Shown here: piece by piece, positions 19,587 through 39,460 of the stretch
Layout: every line of letters starts with the position of its first letter
Position numbering within the stretch: position 1 is the first letter of the stretch
Assembly: GCF_021129305.1 (NCBI RefSeq)
Contig: NZ_JAJOMB010000024.1
Span: forward strand, 100,273-164,272
Reading direction: 5' to 3'
Length of the DNA: 64,000 nt
From: Kineosporia babensis
GTDB lineage: Bacteria; Actinomycetota; Actinomycetes; Actinomycetales; Kineosporiaceae
The notes under the pieces: model-generated
What the model was told of the DNA's origin: nothing
Databases searched by the model: none
The model's input: the letters and a program-made list of their open reading frames with translations, nothing else
Translations under genes and position numbers: made by a program

Positions 19587-19665
19587 ACCGTCCGCTCGGA
19601 CAACCTTCTGTCCTTTCCCGCGACCTCTCATCACATGCGCCCCACCGAGCGAAAGTGATTACCTG

Positions 19666-22600
19666 ATGGGCAGTCAGCCGCCGGCCAAGACCATCGATCT
19701 ACGAACCGGACAGGCAGTTTCTGGGAAACCCTTGGAAGCTTCTTCGGCAACCTTTCAGGCAGGGATTCCCGGCCGTATTGGACGATGGCAGCCTACGAGA
19801 GCGGGCGTCGTAAACTCCTGGACCTGGTCCGAGGAGGGTTTCATCTTTGCCGACGGATGGGCAGCCCTGGCCGGAGCAAACGGATCAGGCAAATCACTTA
19901 CGGCCTCGATGCTTTGGACCCTTCTCCTGGACGGAGATCACTCCGGTAAAGCCCTCTCGGTCTCCGGCGAGGCATCTGGCACGTTGCTGAGCCGCCATAC
20001 GGACCGAAATGAGAAAGAAGATCGGACTGGTGTCTGGTGGATGGAGTACGGCTTCCGACCCGCCGTAGGCCAAGAAGTCGACTACTTCACGACCGGGCTT
20101 TGGTTGCGTTCGGTCAGTGGCACCCTGCAACGTGTCTTTTTCACGACATCAGCCCGCGTCGGCGAGGAACTCAACCTCGCGCAGGACCGAGAGCCGGTGA
20201 GCATCGAAGTTCTGGCTCGGCAAGTCGCGGCTAGCGGCGGCCGACTGTTCACCGATGTGCAGCGACTCAAGGCGAAGCTCAGTGGACTTCTCCAGTCGAG
20301 CGAAAAGGTAGGCCTCGGGGCCGAAGGGGAGTACAAGGAAGATATTCGGTCGCATCTCTTCGCAACCCTAGACGAGGTCCAGTTCGATGCGCTGATCAGC
20401 GTGCTGCGGAGCGTGCGGAGTGTCCGCACAAGCGAGGGAATCTCGCCGAACCAGATGCGAGAAGTCCTGACCGAAGCTCTACCGGCCCTGAATAAGGGCC
20501 AATTGACTGTCATCGCCGAGAGCATGGAACGTATCCACCAACAGGAACTGAGGCTCGCCCAAGGACGGGAAGAGGCCAAGCAGCTTCAGGTAGCGGATAC
20601 TGCCTATCGAGAGTACCTGAACAAGAGCCTAGATCTTGAGTGCGCCTCACTCGTCACCAGAGAAAAAGCGCTAGCCAAGCAGACTGGCAGAAAAGAAGAG
20701 ATCACAGCCAATCTAGAGAAGGCGCAGCGACAATCACGAGAAGCTCAAGCCAAGTGCGATCGGCTGGCGGGTCTGATCACCGATGCAGAGGGAACGCTGC
20801 AAGGGTGCGAAAGTTCACTTCGCGATCATGCCGGCGCAGAACTTCCCGAGATGGAAAAACGGCTCACAGAGCTACGCGCTCAGGAATCAGAATCCTATGA
20901 GCGGCTGGAAAAAGCCGAAGGTCGAGCCCGCGATGGACGCAACGACCTGTCCGAGAAGCAGGATATTGCAAGATCGGCTCAGCATCACCTACAGGAGATC
21001 GGGCAGGAACTCGTCGGCATTAGCGCGGTCACATCTGCCGGGGCTGCACTCGAACGTCTTTTCGAATCCGGAACCGCCATTGCCTCGGCCTCCCTCACCG
21101 AGCAGATTCTGTCAGCGGGAACCGGCCAGGAGAGTTCCTCGCTGTCGGACACTTCGCCGGCAACCGTGGTCTCCACACCGTTGGCTTGGGTGGAGATGCG
21201 AAGGGGGACGTCCCGAAAGGTCTCCCAGGCACTGCGGGCACAATCGCAGGCGGCCAACACGCTTGAGCTCCTGGCCGAACAGTCACGAGCGAGCGAAAGC
21301 ACACTGGAGCAGGCTGAACTGACCGAGGCCAAGGCTGAAACTATCCGCGAAGCAGCAGAACAGGCTTTCAAAGAAAGCTGCACAGCCTGGGGTGATCAGC
21401 GAATAGAGCTTTCGCCATTGCCTGAACAATTTCTGATCACCGATGATCGCATTGCACCTGCCGCAATCGTGAGGTGGCTCGAAGGCGCCTGGTTGGCTGC
21501 ATCCAAGCGCATCGATCTTCCCGGGTGCGAACGCAAGGTCGGCACCGCGGACGCTTTGGAAGCGGGAGCAAGGAACAGACTCGACCAAGCGGCTCAAGCC
21601 CTGGCGCGAGCCGAGACGTCTGTGCTGGAAGCCGATCAGCAGGTCATGATCACCGAGTCAGCTGTCCAGGCCAAACATGAGAAGCTCTCCGATTCCCGCC
21701 GACGCGCCGAAACTTCTTATGAGGAAGCCATCATGACGGCCAATGGGGTGACGTCGAAGGCAGAGATCGAATTGTCGGACGGACACGCCTCGGCCTCAAT
21801 CTCAGCTCGAGACTGGGTTCAGCGGGTGATGGTGTGGAAATCTGAACTGATACAGCTGCGTGAAATTCTCCATTCAGGACCGGATTCCGAAATTCTGTTT
21901 ACAGCACTCGCCTTAAGCGCAAACGATGATAGCAACGTCAACGAGCTCATCTCGCCTCAAACGGTCTCCGAAACAGTCGAACGCGCCTATCAGACGGTTG
22001 CCAGGACTCTGGCAGCGAGAATGGCAGAGGCCGATACCGAGGTTCGGAATGCTCAGAAGCTCCTGAGCGAAAAGAGCGAACAAGTTCGTTATGCCCGAAC
22101 AACAGCGCCGGTACCCTCCAGCCCGGCGTGGCGCCCTGAACGTGACACCACCGTAGGCCAGCCGCTGTACGAACTCGTGAGTTTCGCGGACTATGTCAGC
22201 GCAGAAGAAGCCAACCGGGTCGAAGGTGCCTTGCTGGTATCGGGGCTCCTGGACGCCGTCGTCACGATCGACGGTCGCCTGCTGACCGGAGACCTCACAC
22301 TGGATCCGACACCCATTGACCGTCACACCCGCTCTCAAACGCCCAGGGTTCTGGCTGATGTTCTCGTTGTTGAAGACGAAACGCTCGTCCCTGCCGATCG
22401 GGTCCACGCGATCCTGTCTTCGGTTGTGCTGGACCCGACCCGCGAAACACGAGCATCGAGTCACGAGGAAATCCACTCCGGAATCGTTGAGATAGGAACC
22501 CTAACGGCTTCAGCGCCCAGCCATTATCAGGCTGCTTTCATCGGTCGCACAACGCGAGAACGCGCTCGTAAGGAACACCTTGCAAGACTCTTGTCGGAGG

Positions 22601-24858: not shown

Positions 24859-24859
24859 G

Positions 24860-26020
24860 ATGCCGGCCGATATCCAGAGGCTCGCAGCGGATCCTGACCT
24901 GCTACCTCTGTGGCAAGCGGTACACGACCGCCTCGCCTCGGGATCAAAGTCTACGGAACTGGCTACGATTCGAATCAGAAGTCTCAACCGGGCCGGAATT
25001 TCGGTTCTCCGATCCTATCTCGACACGACACCCCGTCATCGGCGGGGAAGCTCATCGGTCCGCGTGAAGGCAGGCGACACCGTGGTGTCTCTGCGTGAGC
25101 TTCTCGACAGGTTTGAACTCTCGCCCGAAGTTCTTCCGTCGCTCGTGGTTCAGGCAGTCGGTCGACCCATCGTCGATCGCAGCGAAGCGGCGCGCCAGGC
25201 AAGGAGTCTGAGAGACGAGGTGTGGGACTTCGCGCGACAGAGACTCCACCGTGTGCCTGGACTCGTCGCGAGCATGCGGAGCGCTGGTTTTGGAGAAGAC
25301 GAAGCACCCACCCGGCGCCAGATCGACGCACTGGGAGAGATTCTCGATCAGGTGCCCATACGCCGAAAAGTCAGCCTTGCAAAGCTCAGTCATGATGTCG
25401 CCCAAGACCCGCACTACTTTGATTTGGACACTCTGGCAGGTAAGCGACTGGTGTTGGCGGTTGCCGAAGCCCTCGCCGTCGAGGCGCCTGAGCGTCCTGA
25501 TCTTGTTCGATCGCTTCTGGGGAAGGCCGGAATCATTGGGGATCGCTTTTCCGCAACCGTTTTGGTCATGAACGCAGAAACAACCGGGAGTGGGGTCATC
25601 GATCGCCGCCTGCGAGAGGCAGTTGGCCCTGTCTCTCTGAACCTCTTCGACTTGACGGAGACACCACCCACCTTTGCGCGGCAGACCCTGACCGTCGTCG
25701 AAAACCCCTCAGTAATAGAACAAGCCGTTCAGCAAGGGATCAAGAGGCCGCTCGCCTGCACCAGCGGACAGTTGCGAGCTGTCGATCACGTGCTGCTCGG
25801 CCTTGCGAGGGACTGCCAGGTCGACCTGCAGTATGCAGGCGACCTGGATGTACACGGGCGGCAGATTGCCGCCGTGGTTTCAGGCCTGTATAGCGCGAAG
25901 ATCATTGCTATGGATGAAGATGATCTTTGCGGGGACAATGCGGAGTCCATCTCGTCAGATCCTGTGATCTACCAAGAACATGATGCCTGCCTTCGTCAGA
26001 TCTTCGGACAGGCGGACTGA
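24860..26020 (+). CDS. jetD: Wadjet JetD, TOPRIM nuclease (DUF2399 / TIGR02679 family)
   Basis: A 386-residue protein. The C-terminal TOPRIM part is visible: the glutamate motif in LTVVENPSVIEQA at about 285 and the DxD motif in YAGDLDVHGRQIAA at about 330. The N-terminal two thirds match DUF3323/TIGR02679 (for example VSLRELLDRFELSPEVLPS). JetD cleaves plasmid DNA after recognition by the SMC complex. The gene starts one base after the jetC stop, completing a jetABCD operon of the DUF2397-DUF2398-SbcC-DUF2399 class, usually called type III. All expected catalytic acidic residues are present, so the system looks intact. Confidence 0.88.
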   Translation: MPADIQRLAADPDLLPLWQAVHDRLASGSKSTELATIRIRSLNRAGISVLRSYLDTTPRHRRGSSSVRVKAGDTVVSLRELLDRFELSPEVLPSLVVQAVGRPIVDRSEAARQARSLRDEVWDFARQRLHRVPGLVASMRSAGFGEDEAPTRRQIDALGEILDQVPIRRKVSLAKLSHDVAQDPHYFDLDTLAGKRLVLAVAEALAVEAPERPDLVRSLLGKAGIIGDRFSATVLVMNAETTGSGVIDRRLREAVGPVSLNLFDLTETPPTFARQTLTVVENPSVIEQAVQQGIKRPLACTSGQLRAVDHVLLGLARDCQVDLQYAGDLDVHGRQIAAVVSGLYSAKIIAMDEDDLCGDNAESISSDPVIYQEHDACLRQIFGQAD

Positions 26021-27130: not shown

Positions 27131-27880
27131 CTACTTCTCGGGCGCCCAGGGACGCGTGGTGCTCCAGATGGCGTCGAAGCTCTGCTCGTACTGGTTGAAC
27201 CATTCGGCATCGGTGCTGTCGATCCGTCTCAGCTGGAACAGTGGGTTGGCGCTGGCGGGCTGCCCCCAGATGTGCGGGTTGACCAGGAGCTGGTCGTCGT
27301 ACCGGAAGAGTGAGTTGTACAGCGTGGTGTCGTGCAGGTGGACCTCACAGCCGGGGCGACCGACGAGCGTTCGGTAGTACGTCAGCGACGCGCGGATCTT
27401 TGCGGCCAGGCTCTCACCGATTCCCTCTTCCTCGCCCCTCAGCCGGACGGCCTGGCCCTCCGGGTCGCCGAAGCACAGCCGGACGTGGGCACCAGCCTCG
27501 GCTCGTTCTTGCAGCATGCGGGCGATGTGCGGGTTGGTCTGGGCGAAGAAGGTGCCGGAGAAGACCAGCACGTCGATGTGCTTCGAGGCCCCTCGGAGCA
27601 ACTCCAGCCACAGGTCGCGGGGAACGCTGGCGCGGTTGGCGAAGGTAGCCGCGATCTCCCCGCTGGCGTTGGACACTCCCAAACCGTTGTCCAGTGCCTC
27701 CGGCCAGAGGTGTTCCTCGTCCAGGCCGAGCAGGTGGGCGATGCTCCAGCGGTGCCGTCGCTGGGGTACACGTCCGCTGACCCATCGGCTGGCGGTCTTG
27801 GGATCGACGCCGCACTCGGCCGCGACTTCTGCCACGGTCAGCCCCCGCTGCACCAGAGCGGAACGCAATCGCTCGTTCAC
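27131..27880 (-). CDS. XRE-family regulator with DUF5919 C-terminal domain
   Basis: A 249-residue protein with an N-terminal helix-turn-helix (LTVAEVAAECGVDPKTASRW, then VSGRVPQRRHRW) and a C-terminal DUF5919 region resembling a phospholipase D-like fold (LRGASKHIDVLVFSGTFF, FRYDDQLLVNPHIWG). This actinobacterial family is regularly found next to NUDIX and HAD genes, as here. It is divergent from the HAD gene; an inverted repeat lies between the two start codons. The regulator probably controls itself, the NUDIX gene and the HAD gene. Confidence 0.85.
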   Translation of the reverse strand: MNERLRSALVQRGLTVAEVAAECGVDPKTASRWVSGRVPQRRHRWSIAHLLGLDEEHLWPEALDNGLGVSNASGEIAATFANRASVPRDLWLELLRGASKHIDVLVFSGTFFAQTNPHIARMLQERAEAGAHVRLCFGDPEGQAVRLRGEEEGIGESLAAKIRASLTYYRTLVGRPGCEVHLHDTTLYNSLFRYDDQLLVNPHIWGQPASANPLFQLRRIDSTDAEWFNQYEQSFDAIWSTTRPWAPEK

Positions 27881-27893
27881 TCAGCACAGCAAA

Positions 27894-27912
27894 CCCGATG
27901 TCTCGTATCGGG
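27894..27912. promoter_or_regulatory. Inverted repeat in the divergent regulator/HAD promoter
   Basis: CCCGAT-gtctcgt-ATCGGG is a perfect 6-base inverted repeat with a 7-base spacer, 14 bases upstream of the DUF5919 regulator start and 67 bases upstream of the HAD start. It is a plausible autoregulatory operator. Confidence 0.45.
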
Positions 27913-27978
27913 CGCAAGAACGCATTTCAACCACCGTGCACTCTGCCCTCGACCCGTGGCGTCCTACGCTGGGGCAGC

Positions 27979-28668
27979 GTGCCGCTCATCGTGCTCTGGG
28001 ACATCGACCACACGCTGATCGAGAACAACGGCGTGAGCAAGCAGATCTACGCCGATGCGTTCACCCGCCTCACTGGCCGACCACCTGTTCACCGTGCGAG
28101 GACGGAGGGACGAACCGACAGACTCATCTGCCGGCAGATGTTCCTCGACCACGGTCTCGAGCCTCCGGACTGGGACCTCATGGCTCCTGCCCTGGAGGCT
28201 GCTGGGGCCGGCATGGAAATCGAGCTGGCTCGTAGGGGCGAAGTACTTCCCGGTGTTCGAGAGGTTCTCATGCTCGCGGCTGCGGAACGGGACTTCGTCT
28301 CGTCGGTCCTTACGGGCAACATCGCGGCCAATGCTCTGGTGAAGGTTCGGGCCTTCGGGCTCGATCACCTGCTGGACCTGGAGTGCGGGGCGTACGGCGA
28401 GCATTCCGAAGATCGCGGGGCGCTGGTCGAGGTCGCGAGGAGACGTGTCCACCAGCATCACGGCTTGCCTCTCGCTACGCCGGTCGTGCTCATTGGAGAC
28501 ACTCCGCGTGATGTGCAGGCGGCTCAGGATGCTGGGGCTCACGTCGTCGCCGTCGCGACCGGCGTGGACAGCGCTGAAACGCTCCGTTCGGCTGGTGCGC
28601 CCTTGGTGCTCAGCGACCTCCGGGAAGGTTCCAGCCTGATCGACTACCTGCACTCGCTCACCCACTGA
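27979..28668 (+). CDS. HAD-superfamily hydrolase (phosphatase)
   Basis: A 229-residue HAD hydrolase. Motif I is LWDIDHTLIENNG (with Asp-x-Asp), motif II is the threonine in SSVLTGN, and motif IV is VVLIGDTPRDVQAAQDAGAH; the cap is helical. It should be a small-molecule phosphatase of the phosphoglycolate-phosphatase type. I prefer the GTG at 27979 because homologous proteins begin with this strand; an ATG at 27898 in frame would add 27 residues across the inverted repeat. It is divergent from the DUF5919/NUDIX pair. Confidence 0.86.
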   Translation: MPLIVLWDIDHTLIENNGVSKQIYADAFTRLTGRPPVHRARTEGRTDRLICRQMFLDHGLEPPDWDLMAPALEAAGAGMEIELARRGEVLPGVREVLMLAAAERDFVSSVLTGNIAANALVKVRAFGLDHLLDLECGAYGEHSEDRGALVEVARRRVHQHHGLPLATPVVLIGDTPRDVQAAQDAGAHVVAVATGVDSAETLRSAGAPLVLSDLREGSSLIDYLHSLTH

Positions 28669-28839: not shown

Positions 28840-28895
28840 GTCTGGTTCGTCCGCCGCTCGCCTCAGGTATCTGCTTCGACGGGAGGAGGTTCGTG

Positions 28896-28913
28896 ATGTC
28901 CTACGACCACTGA
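28896..28913 (+). CDS. Pentapeptide precursor MSYDH, biarylitide-like (MxYxH) minimal RiPP gene
   Basis: This 18-base gene (ATG, Ser, Tyr, Asp, His, TGA) is preceded by a near-perfect ribosome binding site, GGGAGGAGG at 28881-28889, six bases before the ATG. The product fits the MxYxH pattern of biarylitide precursors, in which a co-encoded cytochrome P450 crosslinks Tyr3 and His5 side chains (known for BytA/BytO of Planomonospora). A P450 gene begins 84 bases downstream. The Asp at position 4 is notable, because an Asp/Asn-hydroxylase-type oxygenase is encoded in the same operon. A strong hairpin follows the stop codon. The ribosome binding site, spacing and motif are seen; crosslinking is inferred. 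The gene is far too short for standard gene finders. Confidence 0.82.
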   Translation: MSYDH

Positions 28914-28921
28914 TTCTGCTG

Positions 28922-28952
28922 CCGGCCCGGAGCGCAGCAAGCTCCGGGCCGG
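28922..28952 (+). promoter_or_regulatory. Strong stem-loop between precursor gene and P450 gene
   Basis: CCGGCCCGGAGC pairs with GCTCCGGGCCGG over 12 bases with a 7-base loop, starting nine bases after the MSYDH stop codon. No U-tract follows. It probably acts as a partial terminator or mRNA stabiliser, giving more precursor than enzyme transcripts. Confidence 0.65.
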
Positions 28953-28996
28953 GCGAAACCCTTTCCGCATCAGACCAATCCACGGGGAGGTGAGCC

Positions 28997-30160
28997 GTGT
29001 CTGTCGTTGATCGGTACAACCCGCTGGACGCCGACACCTTGGCGAACCCCTACCCGCTCCTGAGCGATCTGCGACGCGAAGCTCCAGTCTTCTGGCATGA
29101 AGGGATGCAGTCCTGGGTGCTGACGCGGTACGCGGATTGCGTCCGGGTCCTTCGCGATCATCAGACCTTCGCCCGCGATCCGCGTCGCAGCGGACGAGAC
29201 GTCCCAGCTGAAAGCCAGAGCGTCCAGACCCTCGACCCTCCCGAACAGGGGCACATCCGATCGCTTTTCATGAATGCCTTGCACGCTCAGCCCCTGTTGG
29301 CGGTGGAGGCGCGCACGCGCCGGTTCGCCAAGCAACGATTGGACGAGCTCACGGACAGGGAAGAGTTCGACGTCATCGCGGAGCTTGCGGTGCCCCTGTC
29401 CCTGTCGTTGATGGGAGATCTGCTGGGGGTGAAGACCCCTCCTTACCAGGAGTTCGCAGAGGTCTCGGACGCCATCATGCGCAGTATGGACGGCGGACTG
29501 AACCCCGCCCTGGTCGAGCCAGGACGGAAGGCCCGCCAGGAACTGAGCGACCTGGTCGACGGCTGGTACGCCGGACAGCGAGGTACGGGGCTCCTGGCCC
29601 AGGTTCGTCGAGCGACCAGGGATGACAAAGAACTCGTCCAGCTGTACGTGAAAAACACTGCCCGCGTGATGTTCCAGGGTGGATACAGCACCATGTCGGC
29701 TGCCATCGGCAACTCCATCGGAGTCCTTCTCACGCACCCTGAGATCCTGGAAAGGCTTAAAGAAGGTGGTCCCTTGGGCACCGCTGTTGACGAACTGGTC
29801 CGGTTCGACGGCCCAGTTCAGGGAACGACTCGCGTCGCCCTGGTTTCCGCCGGCATCGGTGGAGTTCAGATCGCGCCTGGGCAGAAAGTGATTCCGTTGT
29901 TCGTCGCGGCCAACCGCGACCCGGATGCCTTCGCGGAACCGGATCGGATCCTTCCGGAGCGTTCCCCGAATCCTCACCTCGGGTACGGATGGGGAACCCA
30001 TGCGTGTATCGGGACGACCGCCGCTGCCGCGGGACTGCGTGCGCTGATCTCTGCCCTCGCCGACCATCCAGCCCACTTGGAGCCGGTGGGCACAGGGAAG
30101 CGGCGCCCCACAGCCACGATGCGAGCCTTCGACGTCCTACCGGCAGCACTCCGCATCTGA
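28997..30160 (+). CDS. Cytochrome P450, candidate Tyr-His crosslinking enzyme
   Basis: A 387-residue bacterial P450 starting at GTG with GGGGAGGTGA just upstream. The haem-ligand loop is GYGWGTHACIG with Cys337, and the ExxR motif is E266-L-V-R269. The I-helix reads FQGGYSTMSAAIG, lacking the usual acid-alcohol pair (Asp/Glu-Thr), a feature that also occurs in P450s acting on peptides. Its length and position directly behind a five-residue MxYxH gene match biarylitide P450s, which couple Tyr and His side chains. As the first large gene of a five-enzyme operon it likely performs the first maturation step. Reductase partners are not encoded nearby. Confidence 0.9.
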   Translation: MSVVDRYNPLDADTLANPYPLLSDLRREAPVFWHEGMQSWVLTRYADCVRVLRDHQTFARDPRRSGRDVPAESQSVQTLDPPEQGHIRSLFMNALHAQPLLAVEARTRRFAKQRLDELTDREEFDVIAELAVPLSLSLMGDLLGVKTPPYQEFAEVSDAIMRSMDGGLNPALVEPGRKARQELSDLVDGWYAGQRGTGLLAQVRRATRDDKELVQLYVKNTARVMFQGGYSTMSAAIGNSIGVLLTHPEILERLKEGGPLGTAVDELVRFDGPVQGTTRVALVSAGIGGVQIAPGQKVIPLFVAANRDPDAFAEPDRILPERSPNPHLGYGWGTHACIGTTAAAAGLRALISALADHPAHLEPVGTGKRRPTATMRAFDVLPAALRI

Positions 30161-30198
30161 TCTCAATTCAAAGCGATTTCAGCGCTATTGGGGACTCC

Positions 30199-31608
30199 AT
30201 GAGAATCCTGATCGGCAACCACATCGACCCGTCGATCCGCGAACGCACGGACATGAGGGCCTGGACCCAACGCGTCCTCTGGTTCGCTCACCCGAGAGAC
30301 CTGATCGTATTGTGCTGCCAGCCTGACGCCGGATTCCTCGAGTACGCCCTCGCCCACACCGGCGTTCCTCGCGACGAACTGACCATCACCGTCGCTCCTG
30401 CTGGAACGTGGGGCGACAAGGTCCTCGATCCGGCGTCTCTCGAAAACCCCGATCTGATAGCTGAGGTCCGGGCGACGCTCGGGCCATCGGGAACGGCTGC
30501 AGTCCACGAGGTCTTCGCCCTGTGGCCGTCGGCGTCGGTAGCGCGGTTCGCTGACGCGATAGGTGTCAGCGCCCAGTTTCCCGGAGCTGCCTTCTTCTCT
30601 CAGGGAGGAGGCGAGATCGGCAACAACAAGGCCAACTTTCGAGCGCTTGCCGCCGCAGCTGGAGTCCGGATCCCCGTCGGCCGGGTCTGCCGAAGCCAGG
30701 TCGAAGCCGTGGCAGCCACGAACGCACTGCTGGAACGGTCGGGCGATCGCGCCGTCATGGTGAAGCAGGCCCACAACGGCGCCGGCGTCGGCAACCAGCT
30801 GCTGGTGCGCGACTCGCGCCTTCTCGTGGACCACGTCGGCGCACGCCACCTTCACCAACTGGCGCCCGGAACAAGCGGTGTCGAAGCGTACTGGCGAGAG
30901 CGATGGAGCTGGGCCAGCAGCAGCGACCGCTGGCCCGTGGTCATCGAGGAGTTCGCGGTCAACGCGTCCGCGGTCTACTCCGAGCACTACGCCTCCGACA
31001 ACGGCACTCACCCCACAGAGACAGGGCACCTGATCTACGTGGCCCGCCGCCTGAGCCATCAGGTCGTGCCGCTGTCTCCCAACGTGCCCGAGCAGACCCG
31101 AACCGCACTCCTGGACGGCGGCGCTCGCCTGGCCGAGGCCTACCGCGCCTTTGGCTACCGCGGGTACCTCAGCGCCGATGCCCTGGTGCTGCCCGACGGG
31201 CAGGTGGTGTTCACCGAGGTCAACGCCCAGGTCTCCGGGTCGCTGCACATCTACCAGACAATCGCTCAGCAGATCGTCGATGTCCACGCCGAGCCTTGTC
31301 GCAGTGTGGTGGAGTATCACGTGCCGCCCACCTGGGCAGTCCCCAGCTTCGAGGCGTTCCTGACGGCGCTGGACGACCTGGACCTGCGCTACGACGACGT
31401 GACCCGGACCGGAGTGATCGTGTCCATGCCGGCGATCCCGCTGACGCCAGGGGCGCCGGTGCAGTTCGTCTTCTGCATCGCCTTCGACCCTGCTGTCGGG
31501 TACGAGGTGACCTTCGGGCGCCTGGATGAACGCTTTGCAGCGATTCCCGCCGACTCGATCGACCCCAGTCAGCACGTGGGAACCACGGCGCTGAGCTTCT
31601 CGTCGTAA
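30199..31608 (+). CDS. PGM1-like ATP-grasp peptide ligase
   Basis: A 469-residue ATP-grasp protein. The lid and nucleotide-binding region read GEIGNNKANFRALAAAAGVR, VMVKQAHNGAGVGNQ and VVIEEFAVNAS, and the metal-binding end is VVFTEVNAQVSGSLHIYQTI. The overall pattern, including a long N-terminal domain starting MRILIGNHIDP, resembles PGM1, which joins a guanidino acid to the N-terminus of ribosomal peptides in pheganomycin biosynthesis. An amidinotransferase in the same operon supports a similar reaction here. I place the start at ATG 30199, 38 bases after the P450 stop; the open frame upstream overlaps the P450 gene and is a shadow. The substrate is inferred. Confidence 0.82.
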   Translation: MRILIGNHIDPSIRERTDMRAWTQRVLWFAHPRDLIVLCCQPDAGFLEYALAHTGVPRDELTITVAPAGTWGDKVLDPASLENPDLIAEVRATLGPSGTAAVHEVFALWPSASVARFADAIGVSAQFPGAAFFSQGGGEIGNNKANFRALAAAAGVRIPVGRVCRSQVEAVAATNALLERSGDRAVMVKQAHNGAGVGNQLLVRDSRLLVDHVGARHLHQLAPGTSGVEAYWRERWSWASSSDRWPVVIEEFAVNASAVYSEHYASDNGTHPTETGHLIYVARRLSHQVVPLSPNVPEQTRTALLDGGARLAEAYRAFGYRGYLSADALVLPDGQVVFTEVNAQVSGSLHIYQTIAQQIVDVHAEPCRSVVEYHVPPTWAVPSFEAFLTALDDLDLRYDDVTRTGVIVSMPAIPLTPGAPVQFVFCIAFDPAVGYEVTFGRLDERFAAIPADSIDPSQHVGTTALSFSS

Positions 31609-31632
31609 ACCCTCTTCAGATCAGGAGGATTC

Positions 31633-32625
31633 ATGAGTACCTACGCCGCGACCCGGCTGGCTCTCGATCTCGACGCACGCCGTCTGCAGGACGAACTCTC
31701 GGGCGTCACCGGCCACACGTGGGACCTTCAGCGTTCGCACACCGTCCACGGAATCAGCGAACCGGCCGTCATCGACTGGCGCATCCTGCCGCTGCACAGC
31801 CCGGGCGGCGACTCTGAGCGCACCGACCCCGGCGGACCCGGGTGCGAACCGTTCGCGCCGACCTTCTGGCTCGGACAGTTGCCATACCTGGCGCAGGTGC
31901 TGGAATCCATTCCCGCTCCGCGCAACGCAGCACGGCTGATGGCCCTGGGACCGGGAGCCGTCATCGCCCCGCATCGGGATCTCAAACACCAGCTCGACCG
32001 AGGATTCATGCGTCTGCACATCCCGATCGTCACGACGCCCGAAGCGGTGCTGACGCTCGACGGCGTCGAGCACTGCTGGCAGCCGGGAACCTTCTGGTAC
32101 GGCGACTTCTCCCGCGAGCACTCCGTCCGCAACACCAGCACGACCACCCGCGTCCACGCCGTCATCGACGTCCTGCTGACACCAGAACTGACGCGGCTCT
32201 TCCCGGACTCCTGGCAGGATCTGCTCCACAGCGATCAAGTACTGCTGAACCACTACACCTCGAAAGTGCCACGGGATCGGCCTCACTCATCCGCGGTCGA
32301 CTGCCTCGTGCCTACCCAGTTCATCGACTTCCAGTCGGACGACTCGCTGGAAGGCTCGCTCGTCCCGGCGCAGATCAAGCACACCGAGGGGAGCCTGAGT
32401 CTGACCGTGGACGATCGCATCCTCGCTCTGGTGCCGGCCGGAGCAGACGGCGAATGGCGTTTCTCAGGATGGAGCGAACAGCGCACCGTGCAGGTCGTCA
32501 GCAGCGGCGCACTCCTCCTCCGGACCCGCCAAGGTGGGAAGGTCAGCGAACGGCTCGTCCACGTCGTTCCTGATGACGGGCCGGTGGACGTCGTCTTTGA
32601 GGGGGCCGGTTCAGTATGCGCCTGA
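31633..32625 (+). CDS. Aspartyl/asparaginyl beta-hydroxylase-like 2-oxoglutarate oxygenase
   Basis: A 330-residue protein with strong AGGAGG before its ATG. The double-stranded beta-helix core shows the Fe(II) ligands His114-x-Asp116 (APHRDLKHQ) and His163 (SREHSVRN), with a conserved Arg173 in TTRVHAVIDVLL for 2-oxoglutarate binding. The order matches the Asp/Asn beta-hydroxylase family (PF05118). A further C-terminal domain of about 130 residues is not recognised. In this operon the obvious candidate substrate residue is Asp4 of MSYDH, giving beta-hydroxyaspartate; the amino acid attached by a ligase is an alternative. Its end overlaps the amidinotransferase start by ten bases. Confidence 0.85.
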   Translation: MSTYAATRLALDLDARRLQDELSGVTGHTWDLQRSHTVHGISEPAVIDWRILPLHSPGGDSERTDPGGPGCEPFAPTFWLGQLPYLAQVLESIPAPRNAARLMALGPGAVIAPHRDLKHQLDRGFMRLHIPIVTTPEAVLTLDGVEHCWQPGTFWYGDFSREHSVRNTSTTTRVHAVIDVLLTPELTRLFPDSWQDLLHSDQVLLNHYTSKVPRDRPHSSAVDCLVPTQFIDFQSDDSLEGSLVPAQIKHTEGSLSLTVDDRILALVPAGADGEWRFSGWSEQRTVQVVSSGALLLRTRQGGKVSERLVHVVPDDGPVDVVFEGAGSVCA

Positions 32626-33761
32626 ACAGTTACGACGACTTCACCCCGCTGCACGAGGTCATCGTCGGGTCAGCAGCCAACTACATGGGTCATGACCGTG
32701 ACCTCTCCTTCGAGCTCTTCTATCACGAGAGCATCACCGGGTTCCGTTCCGACTGGGCCTACCCTCGGCTCACGAGCTCGAACGGCATGAACGCGGAGAC
32801 CTGGAAGATCAACCAGCGTTACGCCGACGAACTGCACGAGGACGTTGAACAGCTCGCGCAGACCCTCGCCGCTTTGGGCGTGACCGTTCATCGACCGTTG
32901 CCCCTGCCCGAGGACGCAACGCCGATTGCAGGCCTGGGGTGGCAGGCCGCTCCGACACCGGCGCTCAACGTCCGTGACAACACGCTCGTCATCGGCGATC
33001 AGATCATCGAGACACCACCGGCGATTAGATCCCGCTACCTGGAAACCCAGCTGCTGCATGGCGTCTTCCAGAACTACGCGCGCTCCGGCGCGCAGTGGAG
33101 CGTCATGCCGCGGCCGACGCTCAGCGACGCATCTTTCGACTTGTCCTATGCTCGCGACTCCACGACGACGTTGGGCGGCCCCACCGAGTCCATCGCTGAT
33201 CCCCGGTCCGGACCGTACGACGTCGGTCACGAGATGATGCTCGACGGTGCCCAGGTGCTGCGGCTGGGGCGCGACCTGATAGTCAACGTCGCCCAGGACA
33301 ACCACGAGCAAGGACTGCGCTGGCTCCGAACCCACCTGGGGAAACGGTTCCGACTTCATCGGGTCTGGAGGATGGCCGACAACCACATCGACTCGATGCT
33401 CCTCGCCCTGCGCCCAGGCGTCTTCCTGACCCGCCACCACGGCATCCGCGACCTCATGCCCGAGAGCTTCCGCTCCTGGCGCTTCATCGTTCCGCCAGAG
33501 CCCGACCACGGCGCGTTCCCGGTCTACGACGATTACGACGACCTCGTGCTGACGAGCCCGTACATCGACCTGAACATCTTCTCGATCAACGAGCACACCG
33601 TCCTGGCGAACGAGGACTGCACCGGCCTCATCAAGGCCCTCGAAACCGAGGGCTTCGACGTCATCCCGGTCCGGCACCGCCATCGACGGCTTTTCGGCGG
33701 CGGTTTCCACTGCTTCACCCTGGACACCCACCGCGATGGAGGGCCGGAGGACTACACCTGA
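32616..33761 (+). CDS. Arginine:glycine-type amidinotransferase
   Basis: A 381-residue amidinotransferase. The catalytic triad of the family is present: Asp210 in MLDGAQVLRLGRDL, His257 in DNHIDSM and the nucleophile Cys366 in GGGFHCFTLD. Such enzymes move the amidino group of arginine to an amine, giving a guanidino compound and ornithine. The protein is close in length to glycine amidinotransferase and to streptomycin or resorcinomycin-type enzymes. It lies between the oxygenase and the second ATP-grasp gene with overlaps on both sides, so it is part of the same biosynthetic unit. A guanidino acid for the PGM1-like ligase is the likeliest product. Confidence 0.9.
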   Translation: MRLNSYDDFTPLHEVIVGSAANYMGHDRDLSFELFYHESITGFRSDWAYPRLTSSNGMNAETWKINQRYADELHEDVEQLAQTLAALGVTVHRPLPLPEDATPIAGLGWQAAPTPALNVRDNTLVIGDQIIETPPAIRSRYLETQLLHGVFQNYARSGAQWSVMPRPTLSDASFDLSYARDSTTTLGGPTESIADPRSGPYDVGHEMMLDGAQVLRLGRDLIVNVAQDNHEQGLRWLRTHLGKRFRLHRVWRMADNHIDSMLLALRPGVFLTRHHGIRDLMPESFRSWRFIVPPEPDHGAFPVYDDYDDLVLTSPYIDLNIFSINEHTVLANEDCTGLIKALETEGFDVIPVRHRHRRLFGGGFHCFTLDTHRDGGPEDYT

Positions 33762-35002
33762 TGACGGCTCCCGCTGTGCTTCTGATCGATGCCACGGGTC
33801 CGGACGCCGAGCGACTGCTGAAGGCCGCTGCTGACCGCCGGATCACCATCCACGCAGCGACCAGCCACGATCAGGATCAAGCGGTTCTGCCCGTCGGGGT
33901 GAGTGGGGTTGTCGCCGTTGACTTCGCACAGACTGACCGCGCGGTTGCCGAGATCGTCGAGTACTGCCGCCGACACCAGATAGAGGCGGTACTGACCTTC
34001 AACGAGTACCTCACCGTCGTCGTCGCACAGGTGTGCGCCGCCTTGGGGCTCCCAGGCAACGAACCGAGGCGTGCTCCCGCTGCCCGTGACAAGGAGGCTA
34101 TGGCCACCGCATTGACCAGGGCCGGGGTGCGCGTTCCTGCGACAGTCGTCCTCCACGACCAGCACGATCTCCGTGGGATGCAGGTCGCGACCCCGTGCGT
34201 CGTCAAGCCGGCCAGCGGTGCCGGTTCGGTCGGGGTCTCTGTGGTCACGGCACCCGCTGACTTGCCTGCAGCTGTACACGCCGCGCGCTCGGCACGAGGT
34301 ATGTACGGAAACGAAAATCGGCGCGTACTGATCCAGCCGTTGATCAGGGGGCATGAGTACAGCGTCGAATCCGTCGTCCAGGATGGCGTCGCTCGGCACC
34401 TGGCTGTGACCCGCAAGACAGTGACCGGCTACCCCCACCGGGTCGAGACTGCGCACCACGTCCCCGCCGTCCTGGCCTTCGACCAGCAGAGAGCCCTGAA
34501 GCGCGAAGCAGAACGCGCCATCCGAGCGGTCGGCATCCGCAATGGCGCAGCGCACACCGAGCTCATCCTCGGCCACGACGGAACATGCACGGTGATCGAG
34601 ATCGGTGCGCGACTGGCGGCCGGCCAGATCGGGCTCCTCCTCCGCTACGCCTTGGCCATCGACGTCTACGCCGTGCTGCTCGACATCGCGCTCGGCCGTC
34701 CAGCCGCCGTTCAGCAGGACAGAGGCGGTCACGCCATGGTCCGCTTCGTCACAGCCCCTGAAGGCGGCCGCCTCGTCGCCGTTGAGGGCCTGCCAGCGGT
34801 CGGTCCTGGCGTCCCCTACGTCCGGCAGCGCTTCAACCCGGGAGAACGGGTCACGACCGCCCTATCGAACCGTGACCGAGTGGCAGAGTTCGTCGTTGCC
34901 GGAACCGACCCTGTCGAGGTCGAGGCACGGGCTGAGAACCTCGCCGATCAGATCCGCGTCAGGGTTCGATCAGAGAGTGGTCTCGCTACGTCAGCTGGTT
35001 GA
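33761..35002 (+). CDS. ATP-grasp ligase (carnosine-synthase/amino-acid-ligase type)
   Basis: A 413-residue ATP-grasp enzyme starting in a TGATG overlap with the amidinotransferase stop. The pre-ATP-grasp fold begins PAVLLIDATGPDAERLL, and the ATP-binding core shows RDKEAMATALTRAGVRVPAT, CVVKPASGAGSVGV, HEYSVESVVQDG and the metal site GAAHTELILG with VIEIGARLAAGQIG. Members activate a carboxylate as acyl phosphate and join it to an amine. It is not closely similar to the PGM1-like ligase of this operon, so a second, different bond is expected. Its 3' end overlaps the convergent phosphotransferase gene by 17 bases. Confidence 0.87.
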   Translation: MTAPAVLLIDATGPDAERLLKAAADRRITIHAATSHDQDQAVLPVGVSGVVAVDFAQTDRAVAEIVEYCRRHQIEAVLTFNEYLTVVVAQVCAALGLPGNEPRRAPAARDKEAMATALTRAGVRVPATVVLHDQHDLRGMQVATPCVVKPASGAGSVGVSVVTAPADLPAAVHAARSARGMYGNENRRVLIQPLIRGHEYSVESVVQDGVARHLAVTRKTVTGYPHRVETAHHVPAVLAFDQQRALKREAERAIRAVGIRNGAAHTELILGHDGTCTVIEIGARLAAGQIGLLLRYALAIDVYAVLLDIALGRPAAVQQDRGGHAMVRFVTAPEGGRLVAVEGLPAVGPGVPYVRQRFNPGERVTTALSNRDRVAEFVVAGTDPVEVEARAENLADQIRVRVRSESGLATSAG

Positions 35003-35972
35003 GGATCGCTTCCATAGCCGGGTAGCTGTCGGCGACGAGATCGTCCTTCCCGAGCCGGAGCCGTTCCAGTCGGATCCCGCCCAGGTGACGTGCCTCGTAG
35101 ACCAGCTCTCGCCAACGCGCCTCGGGCGTCTCTGACGTCTGGCCGTAGGTCTCCCAGAAGGCCTGACGCTCATCCTGTTTGGCCTTGGCCATGCGGATGG
35201 TCCAGTCAGCTGCCGGGTCACCGAACCAGGTCCGATCGAAGTCCAGGACGCCGGTGATCGTCGGCTCCGGGGCTCCGGACGCCAGGAGGCAGTTGATCGT
35301 CCACAGATCACCGGTCAGCAGCATCGGCTCGGTGATCTCGTCCAGCGTGGGCCGCGCATCGGACGCGATCGCCATGACCTTCTGGAGGTCGGCTGAGTCC
35401 AGACCCGCGGTGTCGAGGTCGAAGGCGATCGAGTCGAACGACGCCAGCAACGCGTCACTCCAGGACCCATAGGCGGGGCCAGCCACAGGCCCGAAGTGAT
35501 CACCGCGCACGTCGTGCACCGAGCGGGTGATCGCTCCCATCTGCCGGAAGTACCCCGGGAAGGTGTCTCGCGGGTAAGTGCTCAAGATGTCAGGGGCGGG
35601 GACACCGTCGAGGTAGGTCTGAATCATCCAGTCCCGCTCGATCACGGAACCGGTCCAGTCCGCGGCAACGACCTGCGGCATGAACTGGGCGATCGGCGCC
35701 AGCCACGGCTGGCTGGCGAACTCGTTGCGCATCAAATGACGCTCACTACGGAACTGACGTTCCGCAGGCGGAGCCGCCCGCAGAATCAGAGGTGCGCTCT
35801 GACCGGTCACCGTGACGCGGTAAACGTTGTTGTACAGGCCGGCGCCCAGCTCGACCACGGCAGTGGGTTCTGCGTCGCCACGGAAAACGTGAGCGAAGAC
35901 CGCCCGCACCTCATCAGCCGACAGCGACTGCTGAAAGGCATCCGCCGGCCGTTCGACAGGACGGAAATCCAC
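34986..35972 (-). CDS. Aminoglycoside phosphotransferase-like (APH) kinase with altered catalytic loop
   Basis: I start it at GTG 35972, five bases after AGGGGGG, giving 328 residues. The APH fold is visible: a glycine-rich ELGAGLYNNVYRV loop, then PLILRA for the ATP-side lysine region (Arg instead of Lys), the catalytic loop LLTGDLWTINCLL and the metal motif GVLDFDRTWFGDP. The usual HGD catalytic triplet reads TGD, so His is replaced by Thr while Asp and Asn are kept. It converges on the RiPP-like operon, overlapping its last gene by 17 bases. It could phosphorylate the product for self-protection or be unrelated; nothing decides this. Confidence 0.82.
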   Translation of the reverse strand: MDFRPVERPADAFQQSLSADEVRAVFAHVFRGDAEPTAVVELGAGLYNNVYRVTVTGQSAPLILRAAPPAERQFRSERHLMRNEFASQPWLAPIAQFMPQVVAADWTGSVIERDWMIQTYLDGVPAPDILSTYPRDTFPGYFRQMGAITRSVHDVRGDHFGPVAGPAYGSWSDALLASFDSIAFDLDTAGLDSADLQKVMAIASDARPTLDEITEPMLLTGDLWTINCLLASGAPEPTITGVLDFDRTWFGDPAADWTIRMAKAKQDERQAFWETYGQTSETPEARWRELVYEARHLGGIRLERLRLGKDDLVADSYPAMEAILNQLT

Positions 35973-36568: not shown

Positions 36569-39460
36569 GTGGTCATGACGATCGCGAAGCTGACTGCCGG
36601 AGACGGCTACCTGTATCTGATGCGGGACATCGCCACCGCCCACGTCGATGCGCGGGCCAAGCCGGGCCAGGACGTGAGCGCGTACTACACGGCTGAAGGC
36701 AACCCGCCCGGCATCTGGATCGGCCGAGGACTGCACCTGCTGGGCCTGGCCCCGGACCAGGGCCAGCCCGCCCGCATCGTGCAGGCCGAGCAGATGCAAG
36801 CGTTGTTCGGGATGGGTCTGCACCCCGACGCCGACGCTCGAATCCGGGCCTACCAGCGCGAGCGCATCACCGCCGGCATGGCCCCGGAGGAGCTGGAGAA
36901 GGTCAGCGCCGAGGCTCTGCGCAGCGTCACTCTCGGACGCCCGTTCGCCGCGTACACCCCGCTGGAGCCGTTCGAGGAGCGGGTCCAGGAACGCGTAGCG
37001 GCCGTGATCGAGGAGACCGGACGCCCACCGACTCCGGCCGAGGACAAGCGGGTCCGGGTCGAGGAAGCCCGCCGCCACCGCGGGTCCGTCGCCGGGTACG
37101 ACCTCGTCTTCGCCCCGGTGAAATCCGCTGCTCTGCTATGGGCTCTAGACGAACGCGCTTGGGTTCGTAACGCGGTCATCGCAGCGCATCACGAGGCCAA
37201 GGACGCCACTCTGGCGATGCTGGAGCAGCACGCGGCGTTTACGAGGACAGGCACCGGCGGGGTGGCACAGATCGAGACCAAGGGCCTGATCGGCGTCTCC
37301 TTCGACCACTACGACAGCCGCGACGGCGACCCCAACCCCCACACCCACGTGGCCATCAGCAACAAGGTCCAGGGCATCGACGGCATCTGGCGGACCTTGG
37401 ACGGACGCGCGTTGTTCCGCCTCACCGTCGCCGCCTCCGAGCACTACAACACGGCCTTCCAGATCGCCTTGGCGGCCCGGACCGGTGTGCAGTTCGAGCC
37501 GAGAGACGGAGGCCGTGGCAAGCAGCCGGTGTACGAGATCGCCGGTATTGACCCGGCCCTGATCAAGGATTTCTCCCGCCGCCGTAGTGCCCTGGCGGCC
37601 CGGTACGAGGAGCTGACCAGCGCCTACCGCTCCGAGCACGGACACGACCCGTCCGCGTCCGTGGCGCACAAACTGGCCCGCCGCGCGAACCTCGACACCC
37701 GCCGGGCGAAGCGGGCTCCTCGATCGCTACCCGAGATGCGCGCAACCTGGCGAGAGCAGGCTCTGACCCGCCATGGTCGCGATGCCGTCACCCAACTCAT
37801 GGCGGCCGTTCCGACCCCAGAGAATCACGCCAGCGCCAACGTGAAGCCGATCTCCGTCCAAGCTCTGGCAGCTCAGGTCATGGCGAACGTCGCGGAGAAG
37901 CGCTCTACCTGGACCGTGTTGAATCTGCGGGCCGAGGCCGAACGCCTCGTGAAAGTCACTGCCTCCCGGCATCAACCGATCATCGGCATCAACCTGATCA
38001 GCATCGCTCCAGGCGTCGCGCCGAAAGTCGACGACGACCTTCCTGTTCAGTCGGCGGCGTTGTCCGTCGCTGGTTTGAAGGAGCACCAGGCCGCCGTGAC
38101 AGCGGTGGTCGAACGGGCGATTGCACCGGGCCACAGCATCAGCATCGAGGCACCCGTTCTTCTGGCCGAGCCCGAGAACCTGAAGCGCGCGGACGGGTCG
38201 TCGGTGTTCGTGCAGCACGGGGCCGGCCGTTACACCAGCCAAGCGATCCTGGACGCCGAACAGCGCCTCGTGAACGCCGCCACCAGCCCCGCTGCCGAGA
38301 CCAATTCCGTCCCCTCCTCAGCGTGGATGAGCGCCACACTGGAAGGATTTGAGGCCGTTCACGGGCGCGTCCTGGACGCCGGCCAGCGGGCGATGGTGAC
38401 CGCCTTCGCGACCGACGAACGCCTCCTGTCCGTGGGGATTGGCGCGGCCGGTACCGGGAAGACGACGGCGATGGTCGCCTACCTGCACACCCTGCAAGCG
38501 CAGCAGCGCAGACTCATCCCGCTGGCCACGTCCGCGGCCTCCGCCGCCGTACTCGCCAACGACTTGAACGTCCCGGCCGAGAACGCGCACAAGTTTCTGC
38601 ACGAGCACCTGTCCGGCCGCCACAGCTACGCCTTCGAGACCGGCCGCATCCAGAATCTGCCGCCGAGCCTGCGTACCCTGGCCGTCCGCTCAGGGGACGT
38701 CATCCTGGTGGACGAGGCGGGGATGGCCGGCACGTTCACCCTGGACCGGATCACCGCGATCGCCGCCCACCACGGCGCAACTGTGCGCCTGCTCGGCGAT
38801 TACCGCCAGCTGTCTGCGGTGGAGTCCGGTGGCGCGCTTCGCCTGATCGCTGCCGAGGCGGGCGCGGTGGAACTAGCCACCCTGCACCGCTTTAACGACC
38901 CTGACGAAGCCGCCGCGACCCTACAGATCCGCATCGGCGACACGAACGCACTCCGCTTCTACGAGGAGCGTCAGCGGATCCACGGAGGCTCGGTCGAGGC
39001 AATGACCGACGCCGCCTACCGAGGCTGGTGGGCGGACGTTCAGGCCGGAAACGTCTCGGTGATGGTGGCTGCGACCAACGCCGACGTCACCGCCCTCGCA
39101 GCCCGAGCCCGCGCCGACCGCGTCAAGGCCGGGCAGGTCGAGGTCGACGGTATCGACCTGCACGACGGAAACTTGGCCGGAACCGGGGACTGGATCGTCA
39201 CGCGCCAGAACCAACGCCGCCTGTCCACCCATCGAGGCAATGACTTCGTCCGCAACGGAGACGCCTGGCACGTCCTGGAGCGCCACGAGAACGGTTCACT
39301 TCAAGTCCGTCATCTGGAACACGGCGGCCAGATTCGGCTTCCGGCCGTGTACGTCCGCGAGAACGTCGAACTGCTCTACGCGTCCACGGTCCACCGCACC
39401 CAGGGCTCCACCGTCGGGATGCTCACTTTGGCCTTCACCGTCTCCGGGCGGACAGACTGA
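36569..39460 (+). CDS. MobF-family relaxase-helicase (TrwC/TraI-like), C-terminally truncated
   Basis: A 963-residue protein with the TrwC relaxase start (MTIAKLTAGDGYLYLMRDIA), active-site tyrosines in SAYYTAEGNPPGIWIG and the metal-binding PHTHVAISNKV. The helicase half has Walker A GIGAAGTGKTTAMVAY, Walker B VILVDEAGM, and later LLGDYRQL. The RecD-like motif HRTQGSTV appears only about 22 residues before the stop and the following helicase motif VI (usually YVALTRAR-like) is missing, replaced by GMLTLAFTVSGRTD. Full-length relatives are clearly longer. The break near 39415 lies close to the second att site. Relaxase activity may survive; full helicase activity is doubtful. Confidence 0.88.
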   Translation: MVMTIAKLTAGDGYLYLMRDIATAHVDARAKPGQDVSAYYTAEGNPPGIWIGRGLHLLGLAPDQGQPARIVQAEQMQALFGMGLHPDADARIRAYQRERITAGMAPEELEKVSAEALRSVTLGRPFAAYTPLEPFEERVQERVAAVIEETGRPPTPAEDKRVRVEEARRHRGSVAGYDLVFAPVKSAALLWALDERAWVRNAVIAAHHEAKDATLAMLEQHAAFTRTGTGGVAQIETKGLIGVSFDHYDSRDGDPNPHTHVAISNKVQGIDGIWRTLDGRALFRLTVAASEHYNTAFQIALAARTGVQFEPRDGGRGKQPVYEIAGIDPALIKDFSRRRSALAARYEELTSAYRSEHGHDPSASVAHKLARRANLDTRRAKRAPRSLPEMRATWREQALTRHGRDAVTQLMAAVPTPENHASANVKPISVQALAAQVMANVAEKRSTWTVLNLRAEAERLVKVTASRHQPIIGINLISIAPGVAPKVDDDLPVQSAALSVAGLKEHQAAVTAVVERAIAPGHSISIEAPVLLAEPENLKRADGSSVFVQHGAGRYTSQAILDAEQRLVNAATSPAAETNSVPSSAWMSATLEGFEAVHGRVLDAGQRAMVTAFATDERLLSVGIGAAGTGKTTAMVAYLHTLQAQQRRLIPLATSAASAAVLANDLNVPAENAHKFLHEHLSGRHSYAFETGRIQNLPPSLRTLAVRSGDVILVDEAGMAGTFTLDRITAIAAHHGATVRLLGDYRQLSAVESGGALRLIAAEAGAVELATLHRFNDPDEAAATLQIRIGDTNALRFYEERQRIHGGSVEAMTDAAYRGWWADVQAGNVSVMVAATNADVTALAARARADRVKAGQVEVDGIDLHDGNLAGTGDWIVTRQNQRRLSTHRGNDFVRNGDAWHVLERHENGSLQVRHLEHGGQIRLPAVYVRENVELLYASTVHRTQGSTVGMLTLAFTVSGRTD

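What the first reader, a model, noticed from the sequence alone, without database searches (positions are those of the whole stretch)
28896..35002. Five-residue ribosomal precursor MSYDH heading an expanded biarylitide-like cluster
Seen: an 18-base gene with a near-perfect ribosome binding site, MxYxH product, a P450 gene 84 bases downstream, then PGM1-like ATP-grasp, Asp/Asn-hydroxylase-type oxygenase, amidinotransferase and a second ATP-grasp, all tightly spaced or overlapping. Known: biarylitide BytA pentapeptides are crosslinked Tyr3-His5 by the P450 BytO, and those clusters are usually minimal (precursor plus P450). PGM1 of pheganomycin attaches a guanidino acid to the N-terminus of ribosomal peptides. 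Inferred: here the crosslinked Tyr-Asp-His core would be further hydroxylated and capped with one or two ligated building blocks, one of them a guanidino acid. I do not know of a described cluster with this combination, so it may be a new RiPP/ligase hybrid class.
Basis: partly seen in the sequence, partly recalled or inferred. Interest (0 to 1): 0.95.

Follow-up and report, generated by a model that had tools for sequence, protein, structure and literature searches.

The report
Five-residue peptide gene heads antibiotic-like cluster
An 18-base gene for the five-residue peptide MSYDH heads a conserved, sometimes plasmid-borne gene cluster in actinobacteria; its enzymes are predicted to tie the peptide into a ring and add a guanidine-bearing building block, and a kinase gene found with the cluster almost everywhere suggests that the product is likely an antibiotic from which the maker must protect itself.

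Summary
MSYDH (28896-28913) has a strong ribosome-binding site, is the only match of its pattern in the 9.4-Mb host genome, and precedes a biarylitide-type P450, a PGM1-like ligase, a PF05118 oxygenase, an amidinotransferase and an L-amino-acid-ligase-type ATP-grasp. Of 26 loci found by the ligase alone, 24 have an MxYDH gene and this P450; the other two lack both. A scan for MxYDH alone hit 13 of 392 Streptomyces genomes and none with the reversed pattern: 7 this cluster, 1 a rearranged form, 3 a second type without PGM1, 2 with no P450 nearby. The amidinotransferase is 55% identical to that of a pheganomycin-type cluster, which supports the guanidino-acid idea. The class is not unseen: Padva et al. 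2026 (PMC13417212) report PGM1 homologues with Asp4 precursors in 47 clusters, no product known. New here are the full conserved anatomy, the kinase, an unusual P450 active-site signature, the second type and plasmid carriage. All chemistry is inferred.

The parts
28881..28889 (+). Shine-Dalgarno GGGAGGAGG, 6 bases before the ATG
   Evidence: identical in Kineosporia relative L068
28896..28913 (+). 18-base precursor gene, MSYDH
   Evidence: 32 distinct sites, residue 2 S, T, F, R or G, residues 3-5 always YDH in a scan that left them partly or wholly free
28922..28952 (+). GC-rich hairpin just after the precursor gene (12-bp stem, 7-base loop), a likely attenuator or 3' stabiliser
   Evidence: the 60 bases after 26 of 32 MxYDH genes fold with z of -2.0 or lower (range -0.3 to -5.2); shuffles kept single-base content only
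28997..30160 (+). biarylitide-type cytochrome P450, predicted Tyr3-His5 cross-linker
30199..31608 (+). PGM1-like ATP-grasp peptide ligase
31633..32625 (+). PF05118 oxygenase, H114, D116 and H163 invariant among 15 aligned; nearest solved relative L-proline cis-4-hydroxylase
32616..33761 (+). amidinotransferase of the pheganomycin-cluster kind
33761..35002 (+). L-amino-acid-ligase-type ATP-grasp (LAL_C2)
34986..35972 (-). APH-family kinase, convergent with the operon; GTG start inferred from the alignment (the ORF runs to 35993); likely self-protection

Best explanation
The window holds a conserved gene cluster whose 18-base gene encodes MSYDH, which a biarylitide-type P450 is predicted to cross-link between Tyr3 and His5, after which two ATP-grasp ligases would extend the Tyr-Asp-His ring, one likely with a guanidino acid that the amidinotransferase would make, while an APH-family kinase likely protects the producer. 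Steps, in order. (1) MSYDH is translated from a strong ribosome-binding site; the hairpin after it likely keeps precursor message above enzyme message. (2) The P450 joins Tyr3 to His5; the bond type cannot be read across from known enzymes, because the I-helix differs at positions that set specificity in P450Blt (H234, E238 and S239 are Q, S and T here). (3) A host protease removes M-S; no peptidase gene is conserved in the cluster. (4) The amidinotransferase makes an N-alpha-amidino acid and the PGM1-like ligase couples it to the free N-terminus, as in pheganomycin. (5) The LAL-type ligase adds a second amino acid, at which end is open. (6) The oxygenase hydroxylates one building block or residue and is dispensable. 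(7) The kinase phosphorylates a hydroxyl of the product, plausibly the Tyr phenol, since the kinase is kept where the oxygenase is lost. The reading frame and signal of step 1 are sequence evidence; steps 2-7 are inferred.
For: 26 loci taken by the ligase protein alone: MxYDH + P450 in 24, amidinotransferase in 26, LAL in 25, oxygenase in 23, kinase in 25 (some are pieces, see Tried and rejected). Outside the span from P450 to kinase no ORF family reached more than 11 of the 27 stretches compared, and the 11-stretch family looks like antisense reading. The P450 joins RufO, P450Blt, 22yx and a Bacillus P450 with 100/99 support against three outgroup P450s. Its ten best PDB sequences have E 1e-64 or better, the next 1e-39 (8SPP, 9DUJ, 9EBY are named RufO and 8U2M P450Blt in passages of PMC12186263; 22yx, 9m47, 8spc, 9jv0 and 9jvj were not traced). 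The pheganomycin-type plasmid cluster L034 has an amidinotransferase 55% and a PGM1 37% identical to the window's; PGM1 couples acids to peptide N-termini (PMC8359417 passage). APH relatives lie on 12 plasmid records: 4 carry the full cluster, 2 what looks like a decayed one (L071, L072), 4 more that I opened show no other cluster gene within 8 kb, and 2 were not opened. Peptide antibiotics met by APH-family kinases are known: ComG inactivates corramycin (PMC10996006 abstract and passages) and Cph gives capreomycin resistance (PMC10730852, start of abstract in the listing).
Confidence: 0.6

Rival explanations
1. The peptide is only a scaffold: as in rufomycin, the P450 alters the tyrosine of MSYDH in another way (not cross-linking), the modified residue is cut out, and the ligases build a small non-ribosomal peptide from it.
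For: RufO, a close relative, nitrates Tyr3 of MRYLH and the residue is released (PMC13417212 and PMC12186263 passages). The I-helix is changed in 31 of 32 YDH P450s to one shared motif, RV[ML]FQGGYST.
Against: Nitration as such is unlikely: of 6 genomes with the cluster, 2 (G015, G201) have no nitric oxide synthase hit (PF02898), and in the window's genome and G004 the only hit is weaker and on another contig.
Confidence: 0.15
2. The amidinotransferase caps the peptide itself (N-terminal guanidination of the Tyr or of the added residue), and PGM1 and LAL add amino acids elsewhere.
For: The L084 (sav-like) cluster has precursor, P450, oxygenase and amidinotransferase but no ligase found by my queries; the published sav cluster has the same four genes.
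Against: The amidinotransferase is 55-59% identical to that of L034 and of 10 further stretches with dpgA, where PGM1 links a ready guanidino acid to the peptide (PMC8939145 passage). Padva et al. saw no amidination of YVH.
Confidence: 0.15
3. The kinase is a biosynthetic step, not protection: a phosphate activates or masks an intermediate.
For: Found with the cluster in 25 of 26 loci and convergent with it. Metabolic kinases share the fold.
Against: Present at full length beside L071 and L072, which lack PGM1 and P450 hits, and on four further plasmid stretches without other cluster genes, as expected of an immunity gene but not of a pathway step.
Confidence: 0.25
4. MSYDH is a regulatory upstream ORF or a chance ORF, and the P450 acts on a small molecule.
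For: A hairpin follows it, as in attenuators.
Against: In type B clusters it lies downstream of the P450 (L078, L079), in L052 between PGM1 and a gene of unknown function, not next to the P450. Residue 2 and the stop codon vary while YDH does not. Pattern-first scan: 13 of 392 genomes, 0 with the reversed pattern, 11 of the 13 beside a P450 of this clade (in L082 only part of it is matched).
Confidence: 0.03

Closest known systems
Biarylitides (BytA/BytO; P450Blt; myxarylin)
   Same: 18-base MxYxH gene, nearby P450 of the same clade, no dedicated protease conserved in the cluster
   Different: Five further conserved genes (two ligases, oxygenase, amidinotransferase, kinase) and, in some loci, a methyltransferase or an unknown protein; other I-helix residues (Q/S/T for H/E/S of P450Blt)
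PGM1 + Asp4 biarylitide hybrids of Padva et al. 2026 (PMC13417212; abstract, sections 5, 8, 12, 13 and passages read; supplements not available)
   Same: Very probably the same group: PGM1 homologue with Asp at position 4, 47 clusters reported
   Different: The main text holds neither 'kinase' nor 'phosphotransferase', uses 'plasmid' only for vectors, and gives no product for the group; Table S1 could not be read
Pheganomycin-type clusters (PGM1)
   Same: PGM1-like ligase (37% to L034) and amidinotransferase (55%)
   Different: No dpgA or radical SAM gene of the L034 kind in the window or L004-L033 nor in L043-L052 and L068, no longer precursor, a different P450
sav cluster, Saccharothrix variisporea (MRYVH)
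   Same: Precursor, P450, amidinotransferase, PF05118 oxygenase
   Different: No PGM1, LAL or kinase hit; P450 34%, oxygenase 40%, amidinotransferase 58% identical in the matching locus L084 (genome unnamed; that it is the published strain is not shown)
ComG and Cph kinases (corramycin, capreomycin)
   Same: APH-family kinase tied to a peptide antibiotic
   Different: No sequence hit to any PDB chain at E 0.01; substrate unknown
Rufomycin RufO system
   Same: Pentapeptide gene + P450 of the same clade
   Different: Nitration with a nitric oxide synthase; feeds an NRPS

Membership tests
biarylitide | 18-base gene, MxYx(H/W/Y), with ribosome-binding site | tested here: met
biarylitide | P450 in the BytO/P450Blt clade | tested here: met
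   (100/99); support was lost when divergent rows and two long outgroups were used
biarylitide | Tyr3-to-residue-5 cross-link in the product | not testable with these tools
   needs enzyme assay or MS/NMR
biarylitide | I-helix residues of P450Blt (A231, H234, E238, S239) | tested here: not met
   V, Q, S, T in the window. The MRYVH-type P450 of L084 differs from P450Blt too (Q, V, S, S), so this is not a strict requirement of the family
PGM1/Asp4 hybrid group (PMC13417212) | PGM1 homologue and Asp at precursor position 4 | tested here: met
   feature read
PGM1/Asp4 hybrid group (PMC13417212) | Window's P450 or its orthologues listed among the 47 clusters | not testable with these tools
pheganomycin-type | PGM1-like ligase and amidinotransferase | tested here: met
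pheganomycin-type | dpg genes for a dihydroxyphenylglycine-derived guanidino acid | tested here: not met
   no dpgA hit at E 1e-8 in the window or L004-L033
pheganomycin-type | Ligation of a guanidino acid to a ribosomal peptide N-terminus | not testable with these tools
   -
APH self-resistance kinase | APH fold with GD-x3-N and DxD motifs | tested here: met
   model mean pLDDT 92.3
APH self-resistance kinase | Phosphorylates and inactivates the cluster's product | not testable with these tools
   -

The most novel reading that the evidence does not exclude
Biarylitides so far look inert because only the stripped-down ones were made. This family is their armed form: a plasmid-spread antibiotic built on a five-residue ribosomal core, closed by P450s with a new active-site code (Q/S/T in type A, N/G/T in type B) that may form a new Tyr-His bond, lengthened at the ends by amide ligases, capped with a guanidino acid, and paired with a dedicated kinase as immunity gene that now circulates on its own.
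Probability: 0.35. Interest if true: 0.85.

Novelty: new variant of a known kind. Interest (0 to 1): 0.63.

Why it matters
The biological function of biarylitides is unknown and published assays found no activity (section read), apart from possible plant effects of related peptides. A kinase of the antibiotic-inactivating fold that accompanies the ligase-extended clusters, and is also found alone on plasmids, says that the finished product is probably toxic to its maker. It names which clusters to express and which gene to delete to find an active biarylitide, and it gives one system in which ribosomal synthesis, P450 macrocyclisation and two amide ligases act on three residues. The sav experiment stopped at the bare ring; these clusters supply ligases that sav lacks.

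Tried and rejected
Chance or regulatory ORF for MSYDH: rejected. PGM1-only logic for Asp4: weakened, because type B clusters L078 and L079 have MSYDH, a related P450 (45-47% to the window's) and an LAL_C2 ATP-grasp but no PGM1 or amidinotransferase. L082 has MSYDH and part of such a P450 beside stand-alone NRPS parts and no LAL hit. L080 and L081 have MxYDH but no P450 in the stretch (L080 is near a contig end). Asp4 as the oxygenase's target: left open, see evidence. An 'upstream gene conserved in 11 loci' was G-rich antisense reading and dropped. The unknown ~330-aa gene between LAL and kinase in six loci has no Pfam hit. AlphaFold of the oxygenase was poor (pLDDT 55) and not used. The kinase fold search does not decide between antibiotic and metabolic kinases; ComG and Cph are not among the 50 rows shown, Cph001 is rank 32. 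Literature searches for this combination in the held open-licence library: of the papers listed only PMC13417212 bears on it directly; 'MSYDH' and 'YDH' do not occur in its main text.

Limits of counts: present means a tblastn hit. L011 (PGM1 and kinase cut short), L023 (contig ends in LAL, before the kinase) and L027 (PGM1 and oxygenase in pieces) are counted as having the genes hit; other odd ORF lengths are. In L033 the amidinotransferase reads GGGAHC, not GGGFHC. The sites and the genome scans fixed YDH by pattern; searches did not.


Full report
What is there. MSYDH is encoded at 28896-28913 behind GGGAGGAGG. P450, PGM1-like ligase, PF05118 oxygenase, amidinotransferase and LAL-type ATP-grasp follow on the same strand to 35002, and an APH-family kinase runs back from 35972 to 34986, overlapping the last gene by 17 bases. 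The host is a Kineosporia: the 93%-identical ligase P0006 is from Kineosporia sp. NBRC 101731 on a contig of 486,665 bases, the same length as contig C6 of G004, a genome of the window's own genus.

Is it more than chance. One site in 9.4 Mb fits SD + ATGNNNTAYNNNCAYTGA. The scan of genome contigs used only the ligase alignment, yet 24 of the 26 loci carry MxYDH with an SD and a P450 54-67% identical to the window's. L028 has no P450 or mini-gene and lacks the start of PGM1, with other DNA in their place; Nocardia L029 has no P450, no LAL and no MxYDH in the locus, nor by the SD + MxYDH pattern in its genome. A relaxed scan that let residue 3 be Y/F/W/H, residue 4 anything and residue 5 H/W/Y/F found one site in each of 32 stretches (window, L004-L027, L030-L033, L046, L052, L068) and nothing else in them: always YDH, residue 2 being S, T, F, R or G. 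Both TGA and TAA stops occur. In the Kineosporia pair the SD and gene are identical while flanks differ in places. Pattern first: 13 of 392 Streptomyces genomes have SD + MxYDH, against 0 for the reversed pattern. Seven are canonical clusters, one is the rearranged L052, three are type B (L082 with only part of a P450 matched), two have no P450 nearby. Three canonical clusters (G388, G095, G088) were missed by this pattern because their SD differs.

The missed gene. The kinase is hit in 25 of 26 loci; L023 ends before it and L011 shows only a fragment. Its identity to the window's is 49-66% there, in loci whose flanks share little else: no outside ORF family is in more than 11 of 27 stretches. 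Its GD-x3-N and DxD motifs are conserved. On plasmids 12 records hold a relative: 4 with the full cluster, L071 with a cut amidinotransferase and L072 with a cut LAL (neither with a PGM1 or P450 hit) but a whole kinase, 4 opened records without other cluster genes, and 2 not opened. That pattern fits an immunity gene that outlives its pathway. Loci L019 and L025 keep the kinase without the oxygenase, so the phosphorylated hydroxyl, if on the product, is probably not the one the oxygenase would add. Against it: no kinase hit in L052, L078, L079 or L082, and the fold is shared with metabolic kinases.

The P450. PDB relatives fall into two tiers: ten sequences at E 1e-64 or better, among them RufO and P450Blt, then 1e-39. 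With three outgroup P450s all YDH P450s, RufO, P450Blt, 22yx and a Bacillus P450 form one group at 100/99; in a second tree with type B and MRYVH P450s and two long outgroups the split had no support. The window and L068 join five Streptomycetaceae rows at 98/96, which suggests transfer between families. Of 32 YDH P450s, 31 share RV[ML]FQGGYST; L052 has GVMFNASYGT. P450Blt's H234 and E238, which help place His-5 and set specificity (PMC12186263 and PMC10929621 passages), are thus Q and S. Type B P450s have N and G. The bond formed can therefore not be read off from known enzymes. Nitration as in RufO is unlikely: nitric oxide synthase is not found in 2 of 6 carriers searched, and in the window's genome and G004 the one, weaker hit lies on another contig.

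Building block. The amidinotransferase is 55% identical to that of pheganomycin-type cluster L034, whose record is annotated with a pheganomycin-family precursor and DpgABC, but 31-33% to other amidinotransferases of one carrier. Among 392 Streptomyces genomes, 24 had a hit at E 1e-100 or better (28 places; 27 were fetched and G015 is covered by L004). All 10 at 73% or more are this cluster. L052 (67%) is a hybrid; of the 15 stretches with lower values 10 hold dpgA. So this enzyme is a near relative of the guanidino-acid makers, but with no dpgA in the window or L004-L033 the acceptor is probably an ordinary amino acid. PGM1 is known to acylate peptide N-termini (PMC8359417). In the sav experiment the isolated YVH product has m/z 458, 42 above cross-linked YVH by my arithmetic, which would fit acetylation at a free N-terminus; that reading is mine.

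Two types. Type A (window): MxYDH first, then P450-PGM1-(oxygenase)-amidinotransferase-LAL, kinase convergent. Type B (L078, L079): MSYDH after the P450, LAL_C2 ATP-grasp, a flavin-dependent oxidoreductase-like gene, no PGM1 or amidinotransferase. Bacillus plasmid L077 has MNYNH 69 bases after a related P450 and two LAL_C2 ATP-grasps nearby. The thread common to these is the LAL-type ligase, not PGM1 (L082, with NRPS parts in place of an LAL hit, is an exception). This widens the published PGM1-Asp4 association.

Mobility. All four plasmid PGM1 hits above 50% identity (of 8 hits) lie in full type A clusters on Streptomyces plasmids, one typed conjugative with MOBF. The window has a MobF relaxase gene 0.6 kb past the kinase (36569-39460).

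Against print. PMC13417212 (abstract, sections 5, 8, 12, 13 and passages read) reports 277 biarylitide clusters and PGM1 homologues with Asp4 in 47. Those 47 very likely include relatives of this cluster. Its main text holds neither 'phosphotransferase' nor 'kinase', gives no product for the group, and reports that an amidinotransferase + oxygenase cluster yielded only the ring without those modifications. Papers seen as passages only: PMC12951456, PMC12186263, PMC10929621, PMC6511847, PMC8359417, PMC8939145, PMC10996006 (also abstract); PMC11943689 passages and introduction; others as search listings. Verdict: real, conserved, partly anticipated, chemically unproven.

Noticed in passing
window 16669-26020 (+): Wadjet type II defence operon (JetA2, B2, C2, D2 models in PADLOC) a few genes upstream of the peptide cluster.
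   Followed up: partly
window 36569-39460 (+): MobF relaxase/helicase; a second copy, 76% identical, on contig C20 of the host genome.
   Followed up: partly
window 27131-27880 (-) and 27898-28668 (+): HTH regulator and HAD hydrolase directly upstream; both kept in the Kineosporia relative L068 (94 and 93%). Several Streptomyces clusters have a longer divergent regulator there: two plasmid ones annotated HTH, and L017 and L032 with TPR hits.
   Followed up: partly
L077 5980-7230: Bacillus arachidis plasmid: MNYNH mini-gene 69 bases downstream of a biarylitide-type P450 (41% to the window's), with two LAL_C2 ATP-grasps, a PLP-dependent enzyme and a methyltransferase close by.
   Followed up: partly
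   Followed up: partly
L015 14875-15879 and five further loci: Unknown ~330-aa protein between LAL and kinase in six type A loci, no Pfam hit.
   Followed up: no
L029 1393-13158: Nocardia transvalensis: amidinotransferase, PGM1 and kinase of this family with an FAD aromatic hydroxylase, a TPP enzyme and an MFS transporter but no P450 or mini-gene: possibly another product that the same kinase type guards.
   Followed up: partly
L075 8001-14370: Stand-alone relative of the kinase a few genes from YcaO and TfuA genes on a Streptomyces plasmid.
   Followed up: no
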